64,000 nt of DNA from Tubiluchus corallicola (taxonomy: Eukaryota > Priapulida > Priapulimorpha > Priapulimorphida > Tubiluchidae): the NCBI GenBank assembly GCA_030141605.1, contig JAQGDQ010002366.1, positions 743,160 to 807,159 on the forward strand. Direction: 5' to 3'. The stretch's first letter is position 1, and each line of letters starts with the position of its first letter. Made by a program: the position numbers and the translations under genes. Positions 13,661 through 58,868 of this stretch are shown here, piece after piece. The notes under the pieces were generated by a model that made no database searches, was not told the origin of the DNA, and worked only from the letters and a program-made list of their open reading frames with translations.

Positions 13661-13678
13661 ATGAAGCATGGACATTAG
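13661..13678 (+). promoter_or_regulatory. Five-codon upstream ORF overlapping the GPCR start codon
   Basis: ATGAAGCATGGACATTAG: an upstream ATG opens a MKHGH frame that passes over the GPCR start (ATG at 13668) in another frame and stops 11 bases into the gene. If the transcript includes it, ribosomes would have to leak past it or initiate at the second ATG. Neither start context is strong. Confidence 0.4.
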
Positions 13679-14762
13679 ATTAGGCAACGACAGTGACATC
13701 AGTTCACTTCCCACTGATAACATTCACCGTCATCACGATCATCATCACCTCTCCATTGTTACTTTGTACGCAAATTGTCACGGCACAGTCCAAGACGGCA
13801 ACTGGACAACAAAGGACGTGATGTGGGGAGGTATGTACGGTTTTCTCAGTCTACTCACCTTCACTGGAAACATCATCAACATTCTAGTATTCTCCTCTAC
13901 AAAGATGCCATGTTCTGCTTTCAACACTTTCCTTTTGGGTCTTGCTGTATCCGAGGGAACCCAAGGAGGCGTCTACTTTGTGGAACTGACGGTGGCAACG
14001 TATGGACCTAAGCAATGCAATCAGAAAGCCCTCAAGTGCTTAGGTTTAATCGGTGACATGGCTACTTACACCGCAACGTGGATAACTGGTCTTATATCTG
14101 TGGTTCGGTGTTTGGCTATTGTTAAACCAATAAAGTACAGTAACAGCTACGCGAGTTCTGCTTTTGCCGTTAAGTCCATTCTGGCTTGTACTTTAATGCT
14201 TTCTGTACAGGAGGTTGCCATGTGGATTCATGTGTTTGGTCAGCGATTTGAATCGGAATTGACCGTTCTAGAGCCCATACGACAGACGTTCGGACGTTTC
14301 ATACCTATCGGTTTTGCGCTTCTTGCGACTGTCATCTCTGTAGTAAAGATGAAGAATTTACACAAAATTCGAGACACCCAGTCAGGCGAAAGAAGCCAGA
14401 ATTACGTCCTAGGTGCGCAAGGGAGGAAAGCAAAAGACGAGCAAAAGGTAATCCGGATGCTGCTAGCTTTGCTAACTGTGTTTTTTCTGACCAATGGCTA
14501 TGCTGCTATCAACATAATCTTACAGGCAACCACTGACATTGAATTCAGTCTTGTAGTGCTCTGGACAGTTCCATTAGCTTTTGGTTGTAACACCTCAGCT
14601 AATATCTTTATTTATTTTATCATGACACCACTTTATAGGAAGGTTCTTTGGCAGAAATGTCTGTTTTCCAGACGCCACCGCGTTGCTTCTGTGAAAGCAC
14701 TTTCGAAGCCAGTTCGAGTAAGTCACGTGACTTTCGATAATGGACAAGAAGCTGAACTATAA
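13668..14762 (+). CDS. Rhodopsin-class (class A) G protein-coupled receptor, orphan, single exon
   Basis: A 364-residue seven-helix receptor, expected in the plasma membrane. Helices lie at about 52-76, 84-108, 123-147, 165-190, 208-228, 260-287 and 293-318. TM1 keeps GN (67-68). Other class A landmarks are altered: the TM2 acidic residue is Glu96 (LAVSE) instead of Asp; DRY at the end of TM3 is VRC (146-148) followed by LAIVKPIKY; TM6 lacks CWxP; TM7 has NIFIY (312-316) instead of NPxxY. The extracellular N-terminus has two possible N-glycosylation sites (N7, N45) and a His-rich run HRHHDHHH (20-27); no signal peptide is needed. Cys117 and Cys124 flank the start of TM3 and I see no Cys in loop 2. 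The overall style resembles invertebrate peptide receptors (FMRFamide-receptor-like), but the ligand cannot be inferred. ATG 13668 is the first in-frame start, and a short uORF overlaps it. Confidence 0.85.
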   Translation: MDIRLGNDSDISSLPTDNIHRHHDHHHLSIVTLYANCHGTVQDGNWTTKDVMWGGMYGFLSLLTFTGNIINILVFSSTKMPCSAFNTFLLGLAVSEGTQGGVYFVELTVATYGPKQCNQKALKCLGLIGDMATYTATWITGLISVVRCLAIVKPIKYSNSYASSAFAVKSILACTLMLSVQEVAMWIHVFGQRFESELTVLEPIRQTFGRFIPIGFALLATVISVVKMKNLHKIRDTQSGERSQNYVLGAQGRKAKDEQKVIRMLLALLTVFFLTNGYAAINIILQATTDIEFSLVVLWTVPLAFGCNTSANIFIYFIMTPLYRKVLWQKCLFSRRHRVASVKALSKPVRVSHVTFDNGQEAEL

Positions 14763-15125
14763 CAACTATAGCTGGTATCTTTTCAGTTCAAAATCCGACT
14801 GCCCTCATGTTAACGCAGGTTTGAATATATTTTTTGCATATCAAGTGACTTGATAGGTCTAGCTCATAGTAATTTATAAAGTATTGTAAATTGATTATAA
14901 AACATGATTTAGTCAAAGATGACTTTATTGATCATGCAAGGAATTATATAAATACAAATTCACAAATGCACGACATGTATATGAATGGTATATTACTCGG
15001 TAAGCTCCACATTCGAGGAAGAAAAAACTTGCTCCTTTACACTTTGTTCTCTCCACGCCAGGATGCGCATAAAGCTAAGATACCTATTCCCCTTCCAAAC
15101 TATCTTGCCTTTTGCCACCATTTTT
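14763..15125. other. 3' flank of the GPCR gene
   Basis: AT-rich sequence following the stop codon, presumably 3' UTR and spacer. No gene is recognised. Confidence 0.4.
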
Positions 15126-15424
15126 ACTTCTTTCCAGGTCCTCCACCCTATACTTCTCAGTCTGCTTTGCCACTGCTTTGACTTCTTTCCAAGTCCTCCA
15201 CTCTATACTTAGTCTGATTTGCCACTGCTTTGACTTCTTTCCAAGTCCTCCACCGTATACTTCTCAGTCTGCTTTGCCACTGCTTTGACTTCTTTCCAAG
15301 TCCTCCACTCTATACTTCTCAGTCTGCTTTGCCACTGCTTTGACTTCTTTCCAAGTCCTCCACTCTATACTTCTCAGTCTGCTTTGCCACTGCTTTGACT
15401 TCTTTCCAAGTCCTCCACTCTGTC
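15126..15424. repeat. 55-bp minisatellite, about 5.4 copies
   Basis: The unit is CTTCTTTCCAAGTCCTCCAC plus TCTATACTTCTCAGTCTGC plus TTTGCCACTGCTTTGA, repeated five times with few substitutions and one short deletion (copy 2). The unit length is not a multiple of three, so successive copies on the minus strand read in rotating frames. The unit derives from the end of the LINE ORF next to it. Confidence 0.9.
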
Positions 15425-32500: not shown

Positions 32501-35500
32501 TGTCAGGATATTACAAGCTTGAGCAACTTTTTGGGAAGTATTTTTTTTGTCTAAGAGCTCTTGTTAGGAAACAGTGTCTCATCTCTTGACACATAATTAG
32601 TGGGCAATGGGGCGATGAAATGTTGGTAGCTCAGCATAGCTTATTCTGATTATCTTCTCTAACAAGTGATTACCCGCATTTAGTGATGTTTGTCGGTATG
32701 TGTGTGTCTATCTGTCTGTCTACGGCCATATCACGTTGAAAACACCGGTTCTTGTCTGATCACCAAAGTTAAGCAACGTAGAGCCTCGTTAGTACTTGGA
32801 TGGGTGATCACCTAGGAATACCAGGTGCTGTAGGCTTGCGGGATTGCTCAGCCACAGTTGACGCAGCAGCTCCATCAATTTGATCAATAACTGACTCTCT
32901 TAGCGCACACTCCATTGTCTTCCGAGACAGAAGGGTGACAACAATATCTGTCTCTAAGGTCTTCGGACAGGTACAATAAAAAGAAGTTTCATTCACCAAA
33001 CTTGGCACAGTGATGGGTCTGCAATGGGCAAAATAAGCTAGTTGCTTTTTCTGGTTCAAAGACACAAGATAAAAAAATCAAAATAAACTTGTTTTTACCC
33101 ATGCACTGAATTTCATGACAAAGCATAGGCCTGTTTTCATTGTAGTTCTTATTATTTTTACGTCAGCTCTAACTTCATTTAGCTTATAGATGAATTGGAT
33201 TACAAGCTTGCTGACCTACCTAACGAGGGCAATAATGAACTCCGCACTGAGTGCGAAGAAGTTTCACTGGCATTACAAAGCTTACTTCAAGAAAAGCTAG
33301 ATGCTGCTACCTATCATCTATTACTGGTATTGATACTTTATTTTTATTATATTATGGGTTCTCATTTACGTTGAGCTTTCCACTATGTTTTTAATTCTTT
33401 GTAAAGTTTCTGATTTTTAGCGGCTGTGCTGGGATTTCTGGGAATCACTGCAAAAACAAATTTTCTTGCTCATTACAAATTAAAACCTAAAACCTGGGTT
33501 TAATATATACTGTTTTTAGCTGTTTAAGATTATTCTCTACTAGATATATATAGTAGTCTGCTTACAATAGTACATTATTAAAGCCAGTGTCATTCTGACA
33601 TAAAAGCTTGAGCAGCGTGCATTTTTTTATTCGTTTTAAATATATGACACCAATTGAAATGCATACTCGTCTTCACGCTTATGCTTGACTTGGTTTAAAT
33701 GGTTCTTTTACAGGAAGCTTCAAACTTGGCTGACTCAGATACTTTGAATATGGAGAAAGTTTATGGCAATCAACATATTCAACTTTGTATTTGGGGAAAT
33801 ATCAGCAAGAATCCTAGGTGCACTTTGACATTAGTTATGTCATAGGAATGTGAGATTTGTTCCAGCCTTTTTAGACAAATAATCATCTTTTTTGCCGTTG
33901 CCTTACACCATAATGCCGTAAAAAGTGTCCATAAGAAAGAATTGAAGAAACAATGTTTCACTCCTTTGTGACTAATAGTTTTTCCTACTGGGTGAGAAAC
34001 AAAAAAGGTTAAAAGTGCTTTAATACACAATCCACAAAACGGAGAAGAGCGGAAAGAAACACAAGAATCACTAAACGTAATCATTAATTCTAAGAATACA
34101 CAACACCAGATAATCAACAAGAAGACAGCAGAGTGGCAGAAATAATCAGTAAAAACCACATAATCAGTCCTATAATATGTCCTATTAGTGCTACTGCATT
34201 TTTAGTGATTTTTCGTGATATTTTGTGCTTCGCTGTTATTTAGTATTGTTCTAGGTGAATTAGTAATTGTGTTAGACTTTTTTTGCTTCTTGGTGTGACT
34301 TTTTGTGTTACCCCTTTTGTTGCCAGTATTGGAACTTGTAACAATGATACTTAATGCTAACATACAGTAGGCGCCGCTTAATAAACTCATGGTTAATAGA
34401 CTCAATCACTTAATTGACTCAAAAATGCCTGGTATGAGCCACTTCTGTTCAAATGTACATAAGAACTGTCGGTAATTGACTCAAATAATTCTACATAATT
34501 GACTTTTTTGCTTCACATGCTTCAGTAAGACACTTGTATGACTAATAAACTTTTGCGACTTTTACATCATCTTAGTTTGCTTTTGTCCTATAATATATAT
34601 AAAAACAATCATGTTAAGTACCGTTTTGTTTGCAAGCAGGAACGTTTATCCTGTGCTAATATGCTAGCCTGATGGTTTCCTTTGATCCGCCCGTCCATTA
34701 CAATTAACCTTGTTACTCAAGAATTCCTGGAAGCTAAACATTTAATCACTTGCATAGCGGTTTGCTTTTGAAGTTCTAGCTGTCTTAGCCAGAAAGTTTA
34801 ACAGTTAGATGTTGCTGTTATGCCAGGGATGCAGGTACAGTACAGCAAGTACGTCACAATTGTAGAAAGCGGGAACTTAGCTGAAATTACAGATGAAGCT
34901 ACTTGCGGGGAAAACACGGCACCACCAACAGTTTAAGCACACCAAGCACTAAGTATAGTATGAAAATTTGTGCATCATACAACAACAGATTTTCAACGTT
35001 TTTATCATTATGAGAACTTTATCAGCCAACTTCTTCGCGATAAAATGAAGCAGCCGACTTTGAAGAAATTTTTGTAAGTTTTGCAGATGAACAGACTTGT
35101 GAGATTTAGAAAACTATACTTTTTAATTTATTGCTAATTCACTTATATAAATTAATATTTTAAAACATTTTTTTTCTAACTTTTAACTGCACAAAAGAAT
35201 TTAGGCATTACTTTATTTCTAAAATTCATTAAAATGCAGTGCATACTAACCTGATGGCTCATACTTCTATACCAGTAATACTATACCCTTCAGTTAATAG
35301 GTTCAGTCGGTTAATTGACTCAAAACACTTCGGTCCCAAAGTGAGTCTATTTAGCGGCACCTACTGTATTTGATTCCTTTACACCTTCACTATTTTTGCA
35401 ATTTTGTACCAGTTTATAATCACGTTTTGCTTTTTCTTCATATATAGTGCTGTTTTCTGAAAAAAAGTAAGCCAAATTCTTAAGCACTGCCACAAAATTG

Positions 35501-38800: not shown

Positions 38801-41800
38801 GATGTGAAAAATGTTTGACATTATTTGACTAGGGGGCACCCCTGGGAAATCCATATTTTGCCAAAGAGAATGACCTTGTGTCAGATGTCAAGACCGATCT
38901 AGATGTCAAAAATGAGAGTCAGAAAACACAGCGTGTTTATGTTTGGATTATCTTTTGTTCATTTACAACCCTAACCCACTTGAGCAAGGCGAGGAATCAC
39001 ATCCCTTTATGCCCTCGGGGTGTCTAGACCATTCAGGCAGTGATACAGACAGTGAGAAGTGTCTCACTAGCTATGCAGTATATCACTCACAAAATTTATA
39101 GAGCATATACTATAAATCAGTGAACTCCATCAAGTCTTTTTCTCTAACATACCGTGTGACCCAAAACAAAATTTAAAAGGGTGGTGGGTTGAAAACCGGA
39201 ATCTGTAATAAGCAACAGATTATATTTTCAGAGTTAAAGAGGGCTAGACAAAGTCTTCAAATTTTTGTAAAATTTTAATAGCCGACTGTCAATCATTCTC
39301 AAAAACAGTACCTAAAATAGGACGACCTCCTCAGTTGCTATATGTCCCAAAAACTTATGCGTGTCGCCAGATGGTTTACACACATCTCGTATTTCGGTAT
39401 GATAAACACGGAGTTAGAAAACACAGCGCCTTTATGTTTACATTATATTTTGTTATACTTGATGATAGGTAGGTAATCCTGTCTAGAGAACTCAACTTAA
39501 TTTGTGGCATTTTGCCTTATTCATACTGGGAGTGAAACAGCTAGATACAGCCTTTCTTTAATTTTTTAAAGCAGCAGGGGATACATGTAATACATTCATT
39601 TCTTTGAATGTTCCTCACCTTGCTGCTGAGTGTATTAGATAGCATCGATGCACTGCTGTAAATCCCCTAACTCTCATGTTTGACATCTTCAGGATGGCTC
39701 TAACTTCCCACTCTAATTCCTTATTCTGACTTGTGTATCAAAAGAGAAACAAGAAAAAGGAGTTCATGAAGTAGGTTTCAGAACAGTCTTGCTTTAAGTT
39801 GCAAGTCACTGTAGTGTGAATATTCCAGAGAAAGCAAACATATTCTTTACAGAATGCCAGCTTTTTAGTATGACTGATGAAGAAAGTACTTTGCAATCAC
39901 CAGTGTGGCTAGCTGTATTGTAGCTGTGATGGTCCCCCATCCAGCAGATTACTGCAACTAATTATTTTTCACTTTAAGTATTAATCTTAACGGTATCACG
40001 AATTGTTTACCTAATGATTGATAATATTGATGTATTGATTTTTATGTTCCAATCTTGTGCTGCCATCTTTAGTCAAGAGTAGCATTATTTTCGATGAAGT
40101 TATCATTAAATGAAGCCTTTTTCTGTTAAGCTACCTTAAATATGTAATTGGGCAGAAGAAGATGAAATTCGTTTCGTTTCAACATGACTTGTATTTTTCA
40201 AGCGAAAATACGTTTAGCAACAATTTTTTCCATGATAATATTATGCCCGTGTTTGAACAAATGTGAAAGCTTCGTCGCTGTACTACTGAGGTCACTTCAC
40301 CCAGAACTCGTTTCTGATTGGTCGGCTAGCTTTTGAGGGCTGGATATTAGACATATTGGCCTACGTGGCGGGGAGAGTAGAATGGCCGTGTTGAAAAATG
40401 GTCTGATATAACTATATCATGGTTTCTTTTACGATGATTGAACAAGAAAATGGATGGTTTGTTCATTACTATGTTCTTTTTATTCATTGGTGAACGCTGT
40501 TCCTCTTTTGTTGGTGAAACCTCGTCAGTTACGCAACTGCTGAGAGACATTTGTTAAATTAGGCATTCGTTACATAGCCTAATCACCTCCTCGTTGGATA
40601 AAGATATTGTCACCTTTGACTTCACGTTCGATGATCTAAATCGCTTCCGTTCTGTGTGGGAACTCGGAGGAGATGATCTTCTCATTATCCGATCTCCAGA
40701 GACTCTACTACGTGTCCGGCCTGTTGGAGGGAAAGCTGTGTAAACCGAATTCTGCTGCATTACCACAACGTGCGTGAGGAAGGACCGGTCTTACCCAAGT
40801 ACTGGAGGAGACCTCGCCTTGTATGCAGGACGTCACGTGAGCGCAAGAAGTATTACAATATTCATATGTTACTATGTTATTTGTCAGCTAAATTAGACTG
40901 ATTCATTGCAGTAACGATGTGGATTTAATTGTTTTACTCAGGTAACGATAATTACTTAATGCCTAATATGGGCACATTATGTTCAAATGTTACATTGGTG
41001 TCAGAAGTTTTACCGAGTTTAATATTAATAGTATATAATTGATATTGCCTTCCTATTAGCACTTAAATGCAGTGGAACTGCTACGTTGGTTGTGAAACTG
41101 TCATAATTTTCAACCTGTTGCATAAATATTAGTAATTTGCTTAAACTGATTAAGCGTCTTGTAAGCTTTTGGTAACTGTGAAAGATATCACGTTAATTCA
41201 CTGGAATTTTCCCAAGAATTTATTCAGTACAGGCTGTATAATCTAATCTGTTTCTCTACACTAGGTATAGCCATTTCTAGGTCAATTTTACCTTGCTCAT
41301 ACGTTAGCTTTGCTGCTTGTTTATAAAATCAAGTTGTGAGAAAAATATTTTGTCCGGGTCGGGCAGATAGCTGGTTCAAGGTCGCCAAAACTTGAACGTG
41401 GTTTCGCAGCAGTTATAACAGCAGCGAAAACGGTTTAATAAGATTATTTTTCCAAACTTGCTTTTAACATTTCGCATAAATTATTTTTGCCCTGCCAAAA
41501 AGTCGGTTGATAGTAGCTAACGCTGATGTGTAAAGTGAGAGTGAGTGAGAGTGGTTAAACATAGATTTACTCCTTACTTTGTGTACCTACTTGGCAGTCT
41601 GTAGTCATCTTGCAAAGTATAAAAATGTCTGATGTTAGATACAAACTTTCAGAGTTAATGACTCTTAATAAAGAGCAGTTGCAGAATATTGTAGCAGAAC
41701 TACATCTCTTAGTCGACCCTACTTCGAGACGGGCTGTTTTAATTACTGCCATTCTCAAGGCCGCGGGTTGCCCTGAAGAGGGAAAACGTGATGAGGGTGC

Positions 41801-44800
41801 AGAACTTGACACTTTCGACGCGGGTATGAATCAGCCTTTACTATGCGCGGAAGCCTCTGACCCGACAGAAGCAGCAAAAACCCCTGATGTCAGTGTGAAA
41901 CCAAAACATATGATAGTTACAGAGCAGTCGCCAACGCCGACTCCTCGTCGTAGGAGAACTACAGAGAGAATGACAGACGTTACTTTAGAGTCTCTTTCTA
42001 CAGTTAACGAAGCTGCTGCTCAAACATTTCTGCAAATTCGACGGTTAGAAGCAGAAACTGAAGCAAAAAAGTTACAATTAGAGCATGAGCGCATTATGGC
42101 CGAGATGGAGTTACGTAAACTTGAATTGACCGCTGCCAGTCCAGTCAGTCAGTCGCCAATGATGTCACAGGCCAGTCCTTTCTATAGTCGTCAAGCGGAC
42201 TCTACCGTTGACAAATTAAAGCTCATGAAAATACGTCCCTTTGATGAAACCAAGGACGATATACAAAAGTTTCTTGATTGGTTTCAAGCTTGTGCTGCTG
42301 CAAACAAGATTGATAGATCAGACTTCGCGGCGTGTATTGGCCCATCTTTGTCTGGCAGAGCAGCAGACGCGTTTCAGCAGATTCCCGAGTCTGAAATGCG
42401 GAACTACACATACGTTCGCAAAGCTTTGCTTGGCGCGTATATTCTAAGCAATGACGTTTACCTGGAGAGATTCCGCGGTACAATAAAGCTTAAGAATGAA
42501 AGTTATCGCCAGCTTTTCAGACGCTTGGATAATAGTTGGCGCGACTATCTTGAAGCCATACAAGCCGAGACTTTTGAGACTGTTAATGAAGCAGTAGTAA
42601 TTGAACAAGCGCTTAGTTTGATGCCACACGATTTGGCCACTTGGTTAAAGACGGATAGCATCAGGACAATTGAGAAGATGGCCCAACGGGCAGATCAATT
42701 TGTCGCAGCGAGACAAATCACTTCCCTTCCTGGGAAAAATGTTTATTCATTTAAAAAGACTGGTAAACCCAATGTTGCCACGTCGCAAGGTGAAGGCGCG
42801 AGCAATACAAATATGAGCCAGAATCTTGCAACCAAAATGCATTGTTACGCTTGTGGAAAGCCTGGTCATAGGCGCAGCGAATGTCGATCGCGTTTGGGAA
42901 CTGAACACGTCATGCGACCTGCTAATGCTGCTGTATTTGGTAAACCTGGCAAACAATTGTTTAGCACACCGGAAATAAAGATGCCAAATAATGATGATGA
43001 TTGGCATCATGTACCTGGCCGAAAACAGCCCGTTGGTTTTACAGCAAAAATTAACGGTTACGTGGTAAAAGGTCAAAGAGACACTGGAGCTGGTGTAAGC
43101 ATGTTACATGCTAAATTCGTTCGCGCTAATCAGTATTTAAATGAACTCCGACACAAGTTCGTATGCGCGTGCGGTGATATGAGGCAAAGTAAATTAGCGA
43201 AGGTTGAAATTATTGGGCCTGGCTTCTCTGGTATTCTGACTGTAAGCGTAAGCGATAATTTACCCGTTGACTTTTTACTTGGAAATAATTACGAGTCAGC
43301 GTTAAAGCCATTCCCGGAGAATGCTGAAAAAGCTTCAAAATTTAATAAAGAAGTGGGTAAATACAGCGTTAAACCAAAGAAGAATGCTGCAAGTAAATCA
43401 CCACCGAAACAAAAGCCTCAATCAGCGACAGATGTGGAGTCAATTTATGCAATAACTCGCTCGCAGGCTGACAAGCTAGAAGCTCAAGTCAAGCAGGACA
43501 CGCTGTTACAACAGCAAGTATTTGATTCGTCAGCATCAAACGATGGATTAGCGGTTAAGGACTCGCCTGCTGAAGATCAGAAACAACTTCTTGACGTCAC
43601 AATTGAACAGATCAGCGAAGAGCAAAAAGTGGATGTCACTATACGAAATATTATTGATAACGCGTGCACAGAAGAAGAGGCATATAAATTAGGCAAAGGG
43701 TACTTTTTGCGCGGAGGTGCGTTATTCTATTTATCTAAAGGAAAACGGCACCAAGCATCTAGGGAGCTGCTTGTACTACCCAAATTTCGCCGCAAGGAAG
43801 TTTTACAACTTGCGCACGGAAGTAAATTAGCCGGACACTTGGGCATAAACAAGACAACTCGGAGAATTCTTCAAGAATATATATGGCCTCGTCTTAAACG
43901 TTCCGTAAGGGAATATTGTCGTTCCTGTCTGACGTGTCAGAAAACAGCGCGTTCACGCAGTGCAGACAGAGCCCCTTTGAAACCGTTACCTATTGTAGAC
44001 ACGGCATTTCGTACCATAGGGATGGACTTAATTGGGCCGCTTGATCGTACACCTTCTGGTAATCGTTGGGCTTTAGTAATAGTGGACCATGCAACACGTT
44101 ATCCGGACGCATATCCGCTAGTAGATATACAGACTGTCACCGTGTTAAATGCACTGTTGAAATTCTGTTGTAGATACGGCATCCCTCGCCAAATATTAAC
44201 GGACTGTGGCACCCAGTTCACTTCAAACTTGACCAAAGAGCTGGAGGATCAGCTCGGTGTCAAAGGTATTTTCACTAGTCCATACTCACCTTCAACGAAT
44301 GGACTCGTCGAGAAATATAATGACACGCTAAAGAAGTCTATTTTACGCCTAACACAAGATTTCTCGTCTCTTCCCTGGGATCTCGCAATTGATTATGTGC
44401 TTTTCTCATACCGTGAAGTTCCACAGGATTCCACAGGGTACAGCCCAAATGAACTTGTCTTTGGCTACCCAGTACGTGGTCCGCTGACCATGCTTAAAGA
44501 GCGATGGGGTTGTTCCAAACCGCCAAGTCTTGAAGATGTCGATGAGTATGTTGCACGAGTTATTAATGCATTAGAGACATCGACAGAAGACGCTCATAAA
44601 TCGCTTCAGGAAGCCAAATTATCCCAGAAACGCTGGTACGACCGGGTGTCAAAAGAAAGAAGTTTCGAGGTTGGCGATAAAGTGATGGTTCAGAGGATGA
44701 GGAAAGGCAAAAAGATGCAACCAGGATGGAGAGGCCCATATCAAATAACAGACAAAGTATCGGATTGGACTTATAAAGTTTGTTTTGGCAAGAAGGGTAG

Positions 44801-47764
44801 ACGGAAGGACACTAGAATTGTTCATATCAATAAGCTTAAGCAATATGTGTACAGAGAGGAGTCCCTGATCCTTAGCAATGAGCTTGGACAATGATGGAAC
44901 AAACTTGAGTGAAGTTCTAGCATATGGCGTTGATGAAGATGTTGAGGAAGATGACATGTATGATTTGGCAATAATAAACCTCGGCAAAGGAATAGTAGAA
45001 CCTGGAGGTCTCCCAGATTATGCTTTTTTGCCAACGGCCATTGCCACACAGTCAGTAAATGATGTCACTTTACCAGACGATCTATCAGAGCAACAACGCA
45101 CAGAACTTCGTTTTTAACAAGTATCCGGAAATGTTTACGGATTTTCCGCCTACGTCCTCAGCAGAAGAAGCTACAACAAATATGTGATTTTCCACGGCCA
45201 CAAACAAAAACTCAAGTACGTAGATTCCTAGGAATGGTGGGCTTCTACAGACGTTTTATCGAGAACTTCAGCACTATCGCTGCACCTCTGTATTCTTTAA
45301 CAGAAAAATATTCCCCCACTCAAGTACCTTGGACAGAAGCTTGTGAGAAGAGCTTTCTTACCCTTCAGAATGCTTTAACTTCTGACAGTGTTCTACATTC
45401 CTCTGATTATTCGAAACCATTTATCCTAACTACAGATGCCAGCTTTGTGGGCATTGGTGGTGTACTCACACAAGATCGTATGAATGGCTTGGGAGAAGTG
45501 CCTATCACATATGTCAGTCGTAGGCTTACACCCACCGAAGTCAGATATTCTGTAGTTGAATGTGAACTTCTGAGTGTTGTATTTTGCATGCAGAAGTTAA
45601 ATTACTATTTAGAAGGCCGCCAGTTTACATTGCGCACTGATCAAAGAAGTTTGCTTGCGCTCAGAAAAATGCTTAAGAATAACAATGTGTTACTGGGCAC
45701 TCATTCTTTCAGAATATTGCTTTACAATTGAGCATATTGCTGGCGCTCAAAACCTTGTTGCTGATGCCTTAAGCCGGAAATAAATATAAAGCGTCAGAGT
45801 ATGAAATGCTCAACAAGTTGTAGTACTTTTTCAGTGCTTAAACAAGTTTTTTTTTGGTGTTATATATCATATATTTGTTTGATGATACATTTGTGGTGTA
45901 TGATGTAATGATCAATTTGCTTCTTTTTATCTTTGTTTTGTCTGAGTTGAAAAATATGTAATAACTCAGTGAGCTACAAAGTCGTTACTTCTATTCATGT
46001 TTGTCATTGCATATGTATGACGTTATCGTATCTTGGCAGTGAAAAATGTTACGTTTCGTAATCATGATCTTGAAATATTTAATATTCTTTAGGGGAAGGC
46101 TCTGTGATGGTCCCCCATCCAGCAGATTACTGCAACTAATTATTTTTCACTTTAAATATTTTTCTTAACGGTATCACGAATTGTTTACCTAATGATTGAT
46201 AATATTGATGTATTGATTTTTATGTTCCAATCTTGTGCTGCCATCTTTAGTCAAGAGTAGCATTATTTTCGATGAAGTTATCATTAAATGAAGCCTTTTT
46301 CTGTTAAGCTACCTTAAATATGTAATTGGGCAGAAGAAGATGAAATTCGTTTCGTTTCAACATGACTTGTATTTTTCAAGCGAAAATACGTTTAGCAACA
46401 ATTTTTTCCATGATAATATTATGCCCGTGTTTGAACAAATGTGAAAGCTTCGTCGCTGTACTACTGAGGTCACTTCACCCAGAACTCGTTTCTGATTGGT
46501 CGGCTAGCTTTCGAGGGCTGGATATTAGACATATTGGCCTACGTGGCGGGGAGAGTAGAATGGCCGTGTTGAAAAATGGTCTGATATAACTATATCATGG
46601 TTTCTTTTACGATGATTGAACAAGAAAATGGATGGTTTGTTCATTACTATGTTCTTTTTATTCATTGGTGAACGCTGTTCCTCTTTTGTTGGTGAAACCT
46701 CGTCAGTTACGCAACTGCTGAGAGACATTTGTTAAATTAGGCATTCGTTACATAGCCTAATCACCTCCTCGTTGGATAAAGATATTGTCACCTTTGACTT
46801 CACGTTCGATGATCTAAATCGCTTCCGTTCTGTGTGGGAACTCGGAGGAGATGATCTTCTCATTATCCGATCTCCAGAGACTCTACTACGTGTCCGGCCT
46901 GTTGGAGGGAAAGCTGTGTAAACCGAATTCTGCTGCATTACCACAACGTGCGTGAGGAAGGACCGGTCCTACCCAAGTACTGGAGGAGACCTCGCCTTGT
47001 ATGCAGGACGTCACGTGAGCGCAAGAAGTATTACAATATTCATATGTTACTATGTTATTTGTCAGCTAAATTAGACTGATTCATTGCAGTAACGATGTGG
47101 ATTTAATTGTTTTACTCAGGTAACGATAATTACTTAATGCCTAATATGGGCACATTATGTTCAAATGTTACAGTAGCATGTCATATTGCTCTAGCCAAGC
47201 GAAAAGTGTGACACATATAAAAGACAAGCTTCTCTTTTTACAAGTACACAACTAAATTAGAAAACTGTTGTGGTCACCTGATGTGATCTAGTGAATTTAT
47301 TGTTGAGCTCAGTTACCAGTGATACAGTTAATGATGTAATGTGAATCTTGTGCATGTCATTAGATGGTTCTCACTTTTTGCAAAGTTGAGCAGGTACAAA
47401 GACTGAGTTTTGTTGAACTTGGCAAACAACAGAAAGGTGGACCCACAGGAGCACTAGGAGGTGACCGTCCCAGTTCAGCAGCTGGAGAAGAAACAAAGAA
47501 GTCGCACAATGTTTCTTTGCAAACTGGTCTTCAACCATTAAATGTTACTTTCAGGTGTGTGTTATATTTCATGCATTCCAACTTATGCTGATTTAAAGGT
47601 TAATAAACTTGTGGCTTTGTTAGTTAGTTGCCAGTTTGTGTCATTATATGTAACAATGTATATTGATCCTTAGGATTATCCGACACATGAATATGATATT
47701 CATTTCAACCGTGACTTTGTTTATTGCAAACTTTACTAGACGATAATATGGCATATGAGAGAGA

Positions 47765-56215: not shown

Positions 56216-58868
56216 TCACGTCGTTGGTACAGTAGGAGATGCCCATGATGGCACTTGATTGAAATTGAACACATAGTAACCATAGGTATTAGCAAATGTC
56301 ATGGCTAGCATGATTCCAATAAGATCCATGAATAGGCCAGTTTTTACCTGCAATGAGCAAAGCATATTTGAAAACAGAGATGTTCTTACGATAGAAGAAT
56401 CACTTTTAATCACAATTAATTTTTTTCTCCCGAAGAAGTCAAAGCATCCACGTATGAAGTAAGAATGACAGGGTTTCGTAACTGCACATCTGAATTGGAA
56501 CACTTAATGAAACTCACTGAATCTACTAGATTGCTTTGATTTATTTATGTAATCAACAGTTGCTTACCATGTCTATCACACGTAGTTCGCCCGTGGCAAA
56601 AACAATTGCATTCGGTGGAGTAGCTACGGGTAGAGTAAAAGCAAATGATGCTGTTATTGTGACTGGAAACATGAGCAATAATGGACTGACCTGCATTACA
56701 TTCGCCTGTAAAAAATCAGGTGATGAATAATTTAGTAACACAGGAAATCACTTACATTTTTACGACTGTCGTTGATTTCTAACAGTTAATGACTTTGATT
56801 TTTAGTCGTACTTTACTCTTATACTTAAAGCCATTTAATGCTTTTATACCAAAAGCATTTAGTGTGCATTCAGATGAAGCGAGTTTAACTATTACCGGTA
56901 TCAAATTTCTCGACAGTCATAACAAATTTAAGCTTAAAAACAATATACTGCAAAACAGCAATTAGTCAAATTAATATAGTAAATATACCAATTCTGGAAG
57001 CAGAGAAAGAACTATGTTAGCCGTTGCCGTGTTGCTGACAACCTCCGTCATACAGCCAGTCATTACGCAGCAGATGAGCACGATGACCCAGACGGGTAAC
57101 GAGCTGAGACTCGTCAGATGAGAACTAATGTAGGTAGCCAAGCCAGATAACTGTAAACAATGACTATCACTGATCAATTCTGAATGTTAAAACGAGAACT
57201 AGCTAGAAATACACGATGAAATAAGACACAGTTTTATATTAAATTGCTTGTTAATCATAATGTCGGCATTATTAATATTATTAATAATTACACAAACCCA
57301 CACTAATTAAATTTTTGATAATCAAACTTGAAAAGATTTTTTTACAAAATCATGAAAAAGTTGGAATACACCACGAATTTGAACCAGGGGTCTTCTGCTT
57401 ACAAGGCAGATGCCTTGACCACTAGGTCACCATATTCCCAGGTGATCAAACCAGTCCCTTTCTGTAGCTTGCCAACAAAATTTAGTAATTACGGTAATAA
57501 CTACTATTACCTAGGACTAGAGGCGAGTAGCAGGGGGGGCGACAAGGGGCAATCGTCTCCAGGTGCAAGAGTAAAAGGGTGCAGAATTCTCTTCTAATGA
57601 CTATTAATGATTAATTACTAATCAGACATTAGCAATTAATAAAAGTTTTCAAATCATAGCAAAACAGCATAGTCAGAAATGATCATAGCTGATTTATTTA
57701 CTACGTACAGTTTAGAAAGAAAGCCAATGTTGTTACTTAACAGCGTGTGTAGGGTGGTGCACGGGGCTTAGCAGTCTGATAATTTTGGGAAAAACAGTAG
57801 CGTCACTCTCTAAATGCCAGTTGTATTACTGTGAAAACCTGTAGTATTTGGTATCCTTATATTTCATTATCTTTGCATGTCTTAATGCTGGAGCTGAATA
57901 TTTAAGAATAAGGACTGTCTTATTACGAGCAACTAATACAAAGAAGTGCATTTCTGACGCAGTACCGCAAATCAAACTCAGGACGATTCTTAGAAAAAAA
58001 TTTTGTTTACCTTTATCCCGTCAAGTTGAAAAAGAAAAGCCGCCCCCAGGGACGCAAAAACTCACATAGTCTGTGGCTTCACCCACGAAACAAATGATAA
58101 AAACATTAAAGATGTAGGGCTCCAGAGGTTTTTTGTTCCCGGCGCCACAAGCACTTGGTACGCCACTGCCTAGAATGCTAAAAACATGACATTATCTGCT
58201 AAGAGTCTAAAAACAGGACATGCAGCATATACACTTACCTCTACACCCTTGGCAAGAGCAAAGCCACCACCCAACAGGAAGACTATACCCCACGGCATCT
58301 TGTGCTGGACAGTGTGCCAGTCTAACAGTGGCTCTCTAGATTCTGTAAAAGACAACCAGCTGGGTAATTCAAAGCATCACCTCAACAAAGATTTAAAAAA
58401 GTACTACAGTGGAAGCTCGACTTACAAAAACCCTATTATATGAAAATTCGGAATACAAATCGGGCCAAGAAAAAATTTCCGTCCCATTTAACGGAAAAAT
58501 ATTCAAGATACAAAAACGAAAATCGAAAGTGCCGCCCGACAGCGGTCCTCTCAGAATGCATTTCGTAGAATTATGTGATCTTATCTCACGCGAACGCATA
58601 ACCATGGACCCAAAAAATATGAAAGTGATATCCGTTTAAGTGCTATCGCAGGGGAGTATGAGCGTAACCCTTCGACGATCGGTCATTAACAAACTTTTCA
58701 GGTGGGTACAATATTTACACTTTATACGACTGTTTTCGGGGGGCTGGAACGAATTACGCCGTTTATATGGTAAATCTTGTCTCATAATACGAAAATTCTA
58801 AGATGCAAAAGCACCTCCGGAACGAATTAATTTCGTTCTCGAGCTATCATTGTATGATGAAAAAAACA

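What the first reader, a model, noticed from the sequence alone, without database searches (positions are those of the whole stretch)
41625..45783. Ty3/Gypsy-type retrotransposon with integrase upstream of RNase H (Gmr1 order)
The frame runs CCHC Gag, DTGAG protease, then a complete D,D-35-E integrase with a GPY module, and only afterwards an RNase H of Ty3/Gypsy style. Ordinary Gypsy elements have integrase last. Goodwin and Poulter described this Copia-like order in a Gypsy lineage (Gmr1-like) from deuterostomes. The 5-bp duplication, tRNA-Leu primer site and long 1070-bp LTRs give a complete description of one copy here.
Basis: partly seen in the sequence, partly recalled or inferred. Interest (0 to 1): 0.75.

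Follow-up and report, generated by a model that had tools for sequence, protein, structure and literature searches.

The report
Integrase-first retrotransposon that lost reverse transcriptase
The window holds a young copy of a jumping gene with an unusual but known gene order; this version has lost its reverse transcriptase yet sits at several places in the genome, apparently spread with help from complete relatives.

Summary
Window 39920-47177 is a young Ty3/Gypsy LTR element: 1,070-bp LTRs differing at 5 positions, 5-bp duplication GTAGC, tRNA-Leu primer site, and an 1,109-codon frame with SCAN-like Gag, CCHC, protease and integrase. RNase H follows in another frame. The polymerase part of reverse transcriptase (RT) is missing. 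Near relatives in the same genome (C704, C1874, C562) carry it at exactly that place, so the family order is Gag-PR-IN-RT-RNase H, as described for Gmr1. IN, RT and RNase H trees separate the same elements, so the copy is not a scramble. Gmr1-like elements are already reported from chordates, crustaceans and an annelid.

The new part is the RT loss. The same junction lies at four distinct sites, with the 1,109-codon frame open at each. Three other RT-deletion lineages were found; one has an identical junction at seven distinct sites. In the window lineage Gag-PR-IN differences are skewed to synonymous changes (19 of 31; about 8 expected), though recombination could explain this. Best reading: semi-autonomous elements that keep Gag, protease and integrase and borrow RT from complete sisters. 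Trans-complementation is inferred. Not tested: clustering with named Gmr1 sequences; the host's identity.

The parts
39920..39924 (+). target-site duplication GTAGC, 5' copy
   Evidence: sequence
39925..40994 (+). 5' LTR, TGTGATGG...TGTTACA
   Evidence: 5 mismatches to the 3' LTR over 1,070 bp
40996..41008 (+). primer-binding site TGGTGTCAGAAGT, tRNA-Leu
   Evidence: 13 nt complementary to the 3' end of a tRNA-Leu(CAG) gene of the same genome plus CCA, with ARAGORN's one-base overhang allowed for
41565..44894 (+).
   Evidence: Pfam
42453..42713 (+). SCAN-like capsid region of Gag
   Evidence: PF02023, E 3e-8, over its cut-off
42840..42887 (+). CCHC zinc knuckle
   Evidence: PF00098, E 5e-4, just under its cut-off; CCHC pattern in the sequence
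43041..43289 (+). aspartic protease with DTGAG at 43080-43094
   Evidence: PF13975, E 0.0026, under its cut-off; motif in the sequence
43779..43949 (+). integrase H2C2 zinc domain
   Evidence: PF17921, E 8e-20
44043..44291 (+). integrase core, D,D-35-E
   Evidence: PF00665, E 4e-12; best solved relative Ty3 7q5b, E 1e-34
44733..44840 (+). integrase C-terminal GPY/p58 module
   Evidence: PF22938, E 1.6e-8
45144..45147 (+). RT deletion junction; about 668 bp of RT fingers/palm missing relative to C704, with CC microhomology
45063..45731 (+). frame with the RT thumb remnant and RNase H (RNase H 45330-45677), separate from the Gag-PR-IN frame
   Evidence: PF17919 E 1e-32 and PF17917 E 2e-26
46091..46099 (+). 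polypurine tract AGGGGAAGG ahead of the 3' LTR
   Evidence: sequence, (motif judged by eye)
46103..47172 (+). 3' LTR
47173..47177 (+). target-site duplication GTAGC, 3' copy
   Evidence: sequence

Best explanation
The element is an RT-deleted, semi-autonomous derivative of an integrase-first (Gmr1-order) Ty3/Gypsy LTR retrotransposon. Shown: the family order is Gag-PR-IN-RT-RNase H; this copy and others lost the RT fingers/palm through one deletion; the deleted form lies at four distinct sites; three further RT-deletion lineages exist. Inferred: deletions arise by template switching between short repeats during reverse transcription. Because IN lies ahead of RT, losing RT leaves an uninterrupted Gag-PR-IN frame. 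The RNA then enters particles and is copied by RT made in trans by RT-bearing sisters with nearly identical LTRs, and is integrated by its own or the helper's integrase.
For: RT is present at the same place in C704, C1874 and C562 (Pfam RVT_1 E 5e-29 in C704). The junction is contiguous in 6 rows, 100% over 541 nt. Three of these rows are one locus repeated in the assembly; the other three have unrelated 3' flanks starting exactly at the LTR end, so there are 4 sites. The window copy has a 5-bp TSD. Other RT-less lineages: B (4 rows; C85 has TSD CTGCC and LTR ends TG..CA), C (8 rows, 7 distinct 3' flanks; the junction with its 16-nt insert reads the same letter for letter at all 7 sites) and D (one tandem locus). 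The frame is open through the junction in 4 of 4 B copies, in the two C copies held that far (C1927, C1845) and in the one D copy held. In lineage A, 19 of 31 Gag-PR-IN differences between window and C2084 are synonymous against 7.7 +/- 2.4 expected, reached by 0 of 5,000 draws (Nei-Gojobori dN/dS 0.20). C704 has an LTR matching the window's (6 mismatches and 1 gap).
Against: No expression or mobilisation data. The excess of synonymous changes could come from recombination with an unsampled RT-bearing relative: of 33 differences between window and C2084, 28 lie at or before 44157, 7 of the 33 are shared with C1874 or C901, and the two copies differ less in the 3' part. In the integrase tree RT-bearing C704 joins RT-less C2084 with the window outside (weak, 92/8), while the RNase H tree joins window and C2084 (100/92). 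In lineage C the synonymous excess is mixed over the 4 RT-less copies compared. In B, RT-bearing C1707 is not outside the RT-less copies by IN distance. TSDs were read at two RT-less copies only: C1845 lies in a TTA repeat, others end in gaps, contig ends or a cut LTR, and for five C sites the 5' flank was not fetched. No survey of RT loss in ordinary-order elements was made.
Confidence: 0.78

Rival explanations
1. Ordinary decay: RT deletions happened in place in already inserted copies and carry no sign of later movement.
For: 14 further integrase rows lack RT within 1.5 kb without belonging to lineages A-D; C1707 (RT present) and C1804/C1908 (RT absent) share a 5' flank.
Against: One junction at 4 sites (A) and one, identical letter for letter, at 7 sites (C), flanks differing exactly at the LTR end; TSDs at the window copy and C85; open frames kept.
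Confidence: 0.1
2. The missing segment is an intron: RT-less copies are retrotransposed spliced transcripts.
For: The same kind of segment is lost several times, and in B, C and D the frame stays open through the junction.
Against: The printed breakpoints show no GT..AG borders. A has CC, B and D have TCAGAT direct repeats at both ends, C has a short insert.
Confidence: 0.04
3. A mosaic or rearranged element: integrase and RNase H come from different lineages and the order is accidental.
For: The copy alone has no RT and RNase H lies in another frame.
Against: IN, RNase H and RT trees all put IN-first elements on one side against 5 ordinary-order elements of the same genome (94/95, 97/98, 97/98), and the window falls with the same near relatives in the IN and RNase H trees. 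Long branches were flagged and four of five ordinary IN rows are under half filled.
Confidence: 0.03
4. Only Gag is selected (particle supply); integrase and RNase H are passengers awaiting decay.
For: Known Gag-contributing partners such as RLG_Quinta (PMC11302176, abstract and passages); one C pair shows no synonymous excess in integrase.
Against: Integrase in lineage B shows few amino-acid changes (for example 18 synonymous to 3 non-synonymous, C1908 vs C85).
Confidence: 0.15

Closest known systems
Gmr1-like Ty3/Gypsy elements (Goodwin and Poulter; original paper recalled, not held)
   Same: Integrase ahead of RT-RNase H, Ty3/Gypsy-type domains, SCAN-like Gag (PMC3424704 passage; Pfam).
   Different: This copy and three sister lineages lack RT; no direct sequence comparison with Gmr1 was possible.
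Mouse IAP 1-delta-1 (PMC6466679 passages)
   Same: Deletion derivative with an open fusion frame, dependent on proteins in trans, responsible for most new insertions.
   Different: IAP 1-delta-1 loses part of gag and pol; here RT (in B also more of the RT-RNase H side) is lost and Gag, protease and integrase are kept; several lineages arose in one genome.
RLG_Cereba/RLG_Quinta of wheat (PMC11302176 abstract and passages)
   Same: Autonomous partner plus a shorter form that still contributes Gag.
   Different: Quinta lacks RT and integrase; here integrase is kept.
Cattle ERVK[2-1-LTR] D-type elements (PMC10924933 passages)
   Same: Defective copies thought to be mobilised in trans by competent copies.
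   Different: D-type elements keep no intact genes.
Tos17 of rice (PMC3977881 abstract)
   Same: An active but non-autonomous LTR element.
   Different: Tos17 lacks gag; here RT is the missing part. Tos17 is a Copia element.

Membership tests
Gmr1 clade of Ty3/Gypsy | integrase upstream of RT and RNase H | tested here: met
   RT present between IN and RNase H in C704; of 98 IN rows 62 have RNase H downstream, 0 upstream, 36 none in the capped list; 62 have RT downstream within 1.5 kb. In the window copy itself RT is deleted.
Gmr1 clade of Ty3/Gypsy | RT, RNase H and integrase of Ty3/Gypsy type | tested here: met
   RVT_1, RT_RNaseH, RT_RNaseH_2, Integrase_H2C2 and rve found, no Copia family reported; Ty3 is the best solved relative of the integrase
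Gmr1 clade of Ty3/Gypsy | Gag related to the SCAN domain | tested here: met
   PF02023 over its cut-off in the window frame, C704 and C1908; ordinary elements' Gag was not scanned as a control
Gmr1 clade of Ty3/Gypsy | groups with named Gmr1 sequences in a tree | not testable with these tools
   no named Gmr1 sequence held; one viral-contig scan gave no relative
Ty1/Copia | Copia-type RT (RVT_2) and integrase | tested here: not met
   no Copia model reported for C704 or the window frames at E 0.01
non-autonomous / semi-autonomous LTR elements | lacks an essential enzyme | tested here: met
   no RT match in the window copy at E 1e-5; no RVT_1 in the window proteins
non-autonomous / semi-autonomous LTR elements | moved after losing it | tested here: met
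   one junction at 4 sites and, in lineage C, at 7 sites
non-autonomous / semi-autonomous LTR elements | mobilised by a partner's enzyme in trans | not testable with these tools
   inferred from the matching LTR of the RT-bearing C704

The most novel reading that the evidence does not exclude
The integrase-first order predisposes these elements to a stable two-part life. RT is the 3' part, so it can be lost while Gag-PR-IN stays whole. RT-less forms arise again and again, are selected to go on making Gag, protease and integrase, and come to rival or outnumber the complete elements that supply RT: a division of labour rather than plain parasitism.
Probability: 0.25. Interest if true: 0.6.

Novelty: new variant of a known kind. 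Interest (0 to 1): 0.42.

Why it matters
The helper-dependent LTR elements I met in the papers seen keep a gag-pol fusion (IAP 1-delta-1), Gag (Quinta), nothing intact (cattle D-type) or lack gag (Tos17). Here four lineages in one genome lost RT and kept integrase next to Gag and protease, at least two of them spreading afterwards. If general for Gmr1-order elements, gene order would shape how often and how successfully helper-dependent elements arise, which can be tested by comparing RT loss in integrase-first and ordinary Gypsy elements across genomes.

Tried and rejected
Splicing as the source of the deletions: rejected for lack of GT..AG borders and because of microhomology. Mosaic origin: rejected by three trees that make the same split. 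B contigs C1707/C1804/C1908 as plain alleles: their 5' flanks agree but their 3' flanks do not, so only C85 and C2001 are counted as clean separate B sites. Host identity through COX1: no match; a window receptor frame gave only weak, uninformative matches, so the host is left unnamed. IMG/VR relatives: none in one scan. Literature: the searches (2 of 2 papers listed; 15 of 36; 15 of 253; none found; 12 of 76; 12 of 23) showed in the titles and abstract starts listed no report of RT-only loss with integrase kept in a Gmr1-like element. The unlisted papers were not seen and the library lacks most subscription journals, so absence from print is not claimed. only printed a list and gave no result.
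Full report
What is there. The window is G000:C1787:743146-807145 of a 343.5-Mb genome in 2,344 contigs. An LTR element fills 39920-47177: LTRs of 1,070 bp with 5 mismatches, target duplication GTAGC on both sides, and after one base a 13-nt primer site matching a tRNA-Leu(CAG) gene of the same genome, allowing for ARAGORN's one-base overhang (two pattern hits, one of them called a tRNA). The 1,109-codon frame 41565-44894 matches SCAN, a zinc knuckle (just under its cut-off), an aspartic protease (weak, with DTGAG), Integrase_H2C2, rve and the p58 C-terminal module. The D,D-35-E spacing was counted by eye. The best solved relative of the integrase is Ty3 (7q5b, E 1e-34).

What is missing. The long frame ends just after integrase. 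RNase H sits in a separate frame, 45063-45731. No RT match was found in the window copy, whereas C704, C1874, C562 and part of C901 match. Blastn of window 44501-46102 is collinear with L021-L026 but broken at 45146/45147 in L027 (C704) and L046 (C1874), which carry about 668 bp more. In C704 the fetched stretch is one open frame with integrase, then RVT_1 (E 5e-29), then RNase H. The order Gag-PR-IN-RT-RNase H is therefore direct observation in the near relatives, and the window copy is an RT-deleted derivative.

Is the order general? Integrase rows (98) were paired with the best 150 RNase H rows: 62 have RNase H downstream, 0 upstream, 36 none in that capped list. Among the 94 other rve rows, 35 have RNase H upstream (ordinary order), 4 downstream and 55 none. 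These are rows, not elements: the assembly repeats loci (for example C1787, C2138 and C2264 with identical flanks), and a broken copy can give two rows. Trees of integrase (32 rows), RNase H (34) and RT (26) each put IN-first elements on one side and five ordinary-order elements on the other (94/95, 97/98, 97/98). The program warned of long ordinary branches, and four of five ordinary integrase rows are under half filled. The main subfamilies recur in each tree; the place of D and the order of the deepest IN-first branches differ.

The RT-less form moved. A 541-nt query across the junction finds it unbroken in 6 rows, all 100% identical; RT-bearing relatives match in two pieces. The three repeated contigs are one locus; C2084, C1805 and C2252 have 3' flanks unrelated to it and to each other, starting exactly at the LTR end. 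That makes four sites. Two of these contigs end at the 5' LTR, and C2252 lacks about the first 31 bp of its 5' LTR, so only the window site has a readable duplication. All six rows keep the 1,109-codon frame.

It happened several times. Lineage B (C1908, C85, C1804, C2001; RT-bearing relative C1707) lost about 974 bp relative to C1707 at a TCAGAT repeat; C85 has duplication CTGCC and intact LTR ends, and all four are open through the junction, while C1707's own RT match is split in two frames. Lineage C (8 rows) has a net loss of 717 bp with a 16-nt insert; the 8 rows make 7 distinct 3' flanks, the junction is identical letter for letter at all 7 sites, and 6 rows carry RT, besides one more broken-up row set, C1745. 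Lineage D (two tandem copies on C1056 by coordinates, one of them read; relative C19) lost 921 bp, also at TCAGAT. C1927, C1845 and C1056 are open through the junction over the stretches held; A is not, and D's integrase is itself split in two rows. Of the 98 integrase rows, 62 have RT downstream within 1.5 kb and 36 do not; 22 of the 36 belong to A-D and 14 were not examined (in which 76 of the 150 RT rows were entered).

Selection. Between the window and C2084, both RT-less, 31 of 2,778 Gag-PR-IN positions differ; 19 changes are synonymous against 7.7 +/- 2.4 expected when the same changes fall at random, reached by 0 of 5,000 draws, and 83% of draws would have made a stop codon. dN/dS is 0.20. 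Over the whole aligned stretch 33 positions differ; C704 or C1874, where they have a letter, mostly side with C2084, and 7 are shared with C1874 or C901. That fits evolution in the window's line after the RT loss. Recombination with an unsampled RT-bearing copy would look the same; the crowding of differences before 44157, and an integrase tree that weakly (92/8) joins RT-bearing C704 with C2084 and leaves the window outside, keep that open. In lineage C the signal is mixed: for the 6 pairs among 4 RT-less copies compared (of 7 sites), the synonymous count in integrase was matched by 0, 0, 1, 9, 34 and 336 of 1,000 draws. In lineage B integrase dN/dS between RT-less copies runs from 0.05 to 0.27, but RT-bearing C1707 lies among them by distance.

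Mechanism. Short repeats at the breakpoints (CC in A, TCAGAT in B and D) suggest template switching during reverse transcription (inference). Since the RT-less RNA cannot code for RT, its later insertions need RT from another source. C704, with an LTR differing from the window's by 6 mismatches and 1 gap, shows that RT-bearing partners with matching signals exist. The integrase-first order means RT loss does not interrupt Gag-PR-IN; in ordinary-order elements RT lies between protease and integrase (established knowledge). That this order favours RT-less lineages is a hypothesis: no count of RT loss in ordinary elements was made.

Comparison with what is known. Gmr1-like elements are published from chordates (PMC8220671 and PMC4131045 passages), crustaceans (PMC3587641 passages) and an annelid (PMC8220671 passages), and the integrase-first order of the clade is noted in PMC6238403 and PMC2774666 (passages). 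The SCAN domain is reported to derive from a Gmr1-like Gag (PMC3424704 passage), and the Gag here matches SCAN. Deletion derivatives moved in trans are also known: IAP 1-delta-1 (PMC6466679 passages), cattle ERVK D-type (PMC10924933 passages), Quinta with Cereba (PMC11302176 abstract and passages) and Tos17, which lacks gag (PMC3977881 abstract). Loss of RT with Gag, protease and integrase kept, repeated in several lineages of one genome, was not seen among the papers listed (one search found none); those lists are capped.

Verdict. The gene order is known and the element is a likely Gmr1-clade member, with tree placement beside named references untested. The RT-less, repeatedly arisen and spread form is a new variant of a known kind, of moderate interest.

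Noticed in passing
G000 contigs C1787, C2138, C2264 and others: The assembly holds some loci several times; the window locus occurs three times with identical flanks, and other rows come in sets of equal score, so row counts overstate copy numbers.
   Followed up: partly
L035/L074/L076 (C1707), L038/L066/L071 (C1804), L036/L075/L077 (C1908): Three contigs share a 5' flank, with an ordinary Gypsy element about 11 kb upstream by coordinates, and a 5' LTR that does not begin with the intact start seen in C85 (C1908 reads without it; gap letters in C1804 and C1707), but have three different 3' flanks; one carries RT, two do not. A composite unit, LTR recombination or misassembly.
   Followed up: partly
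L058 (C1056) and L036 (C1908) junctions: Two separate RT deletions use the same hexamer TCAGAT at matching 5' positions, a possible template-switch hot spot.
   Followed up: no
G000:C1056:86594-94680: Two tandem RT-less copies about 6.3 kb apart by coordinates.
   Followed up: no
G000:C1977:19160-24583: Two integrase copies with equal scores in opposite directions about 3 kb apart, a palindrome or assembly artefact.
   Followed up: no
L039 (C2001): A B-lineage RT-less copy with an added tandem duplication of about 208 bp at the junction.
   Followed up: no
window 32718-32836: 5S rRNA gene.
   Followed up: no
window 57362-57438: tRNA-Thr(TGT) gene on the minus strand.
   Followed up: no
window 13665-14762: Frame of a rhodopsin-type seven-helix receptor.
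   Followed up: no
window 15111-15421: 55-bp tandem repeat, 5.7 copies.
   Followed up: no
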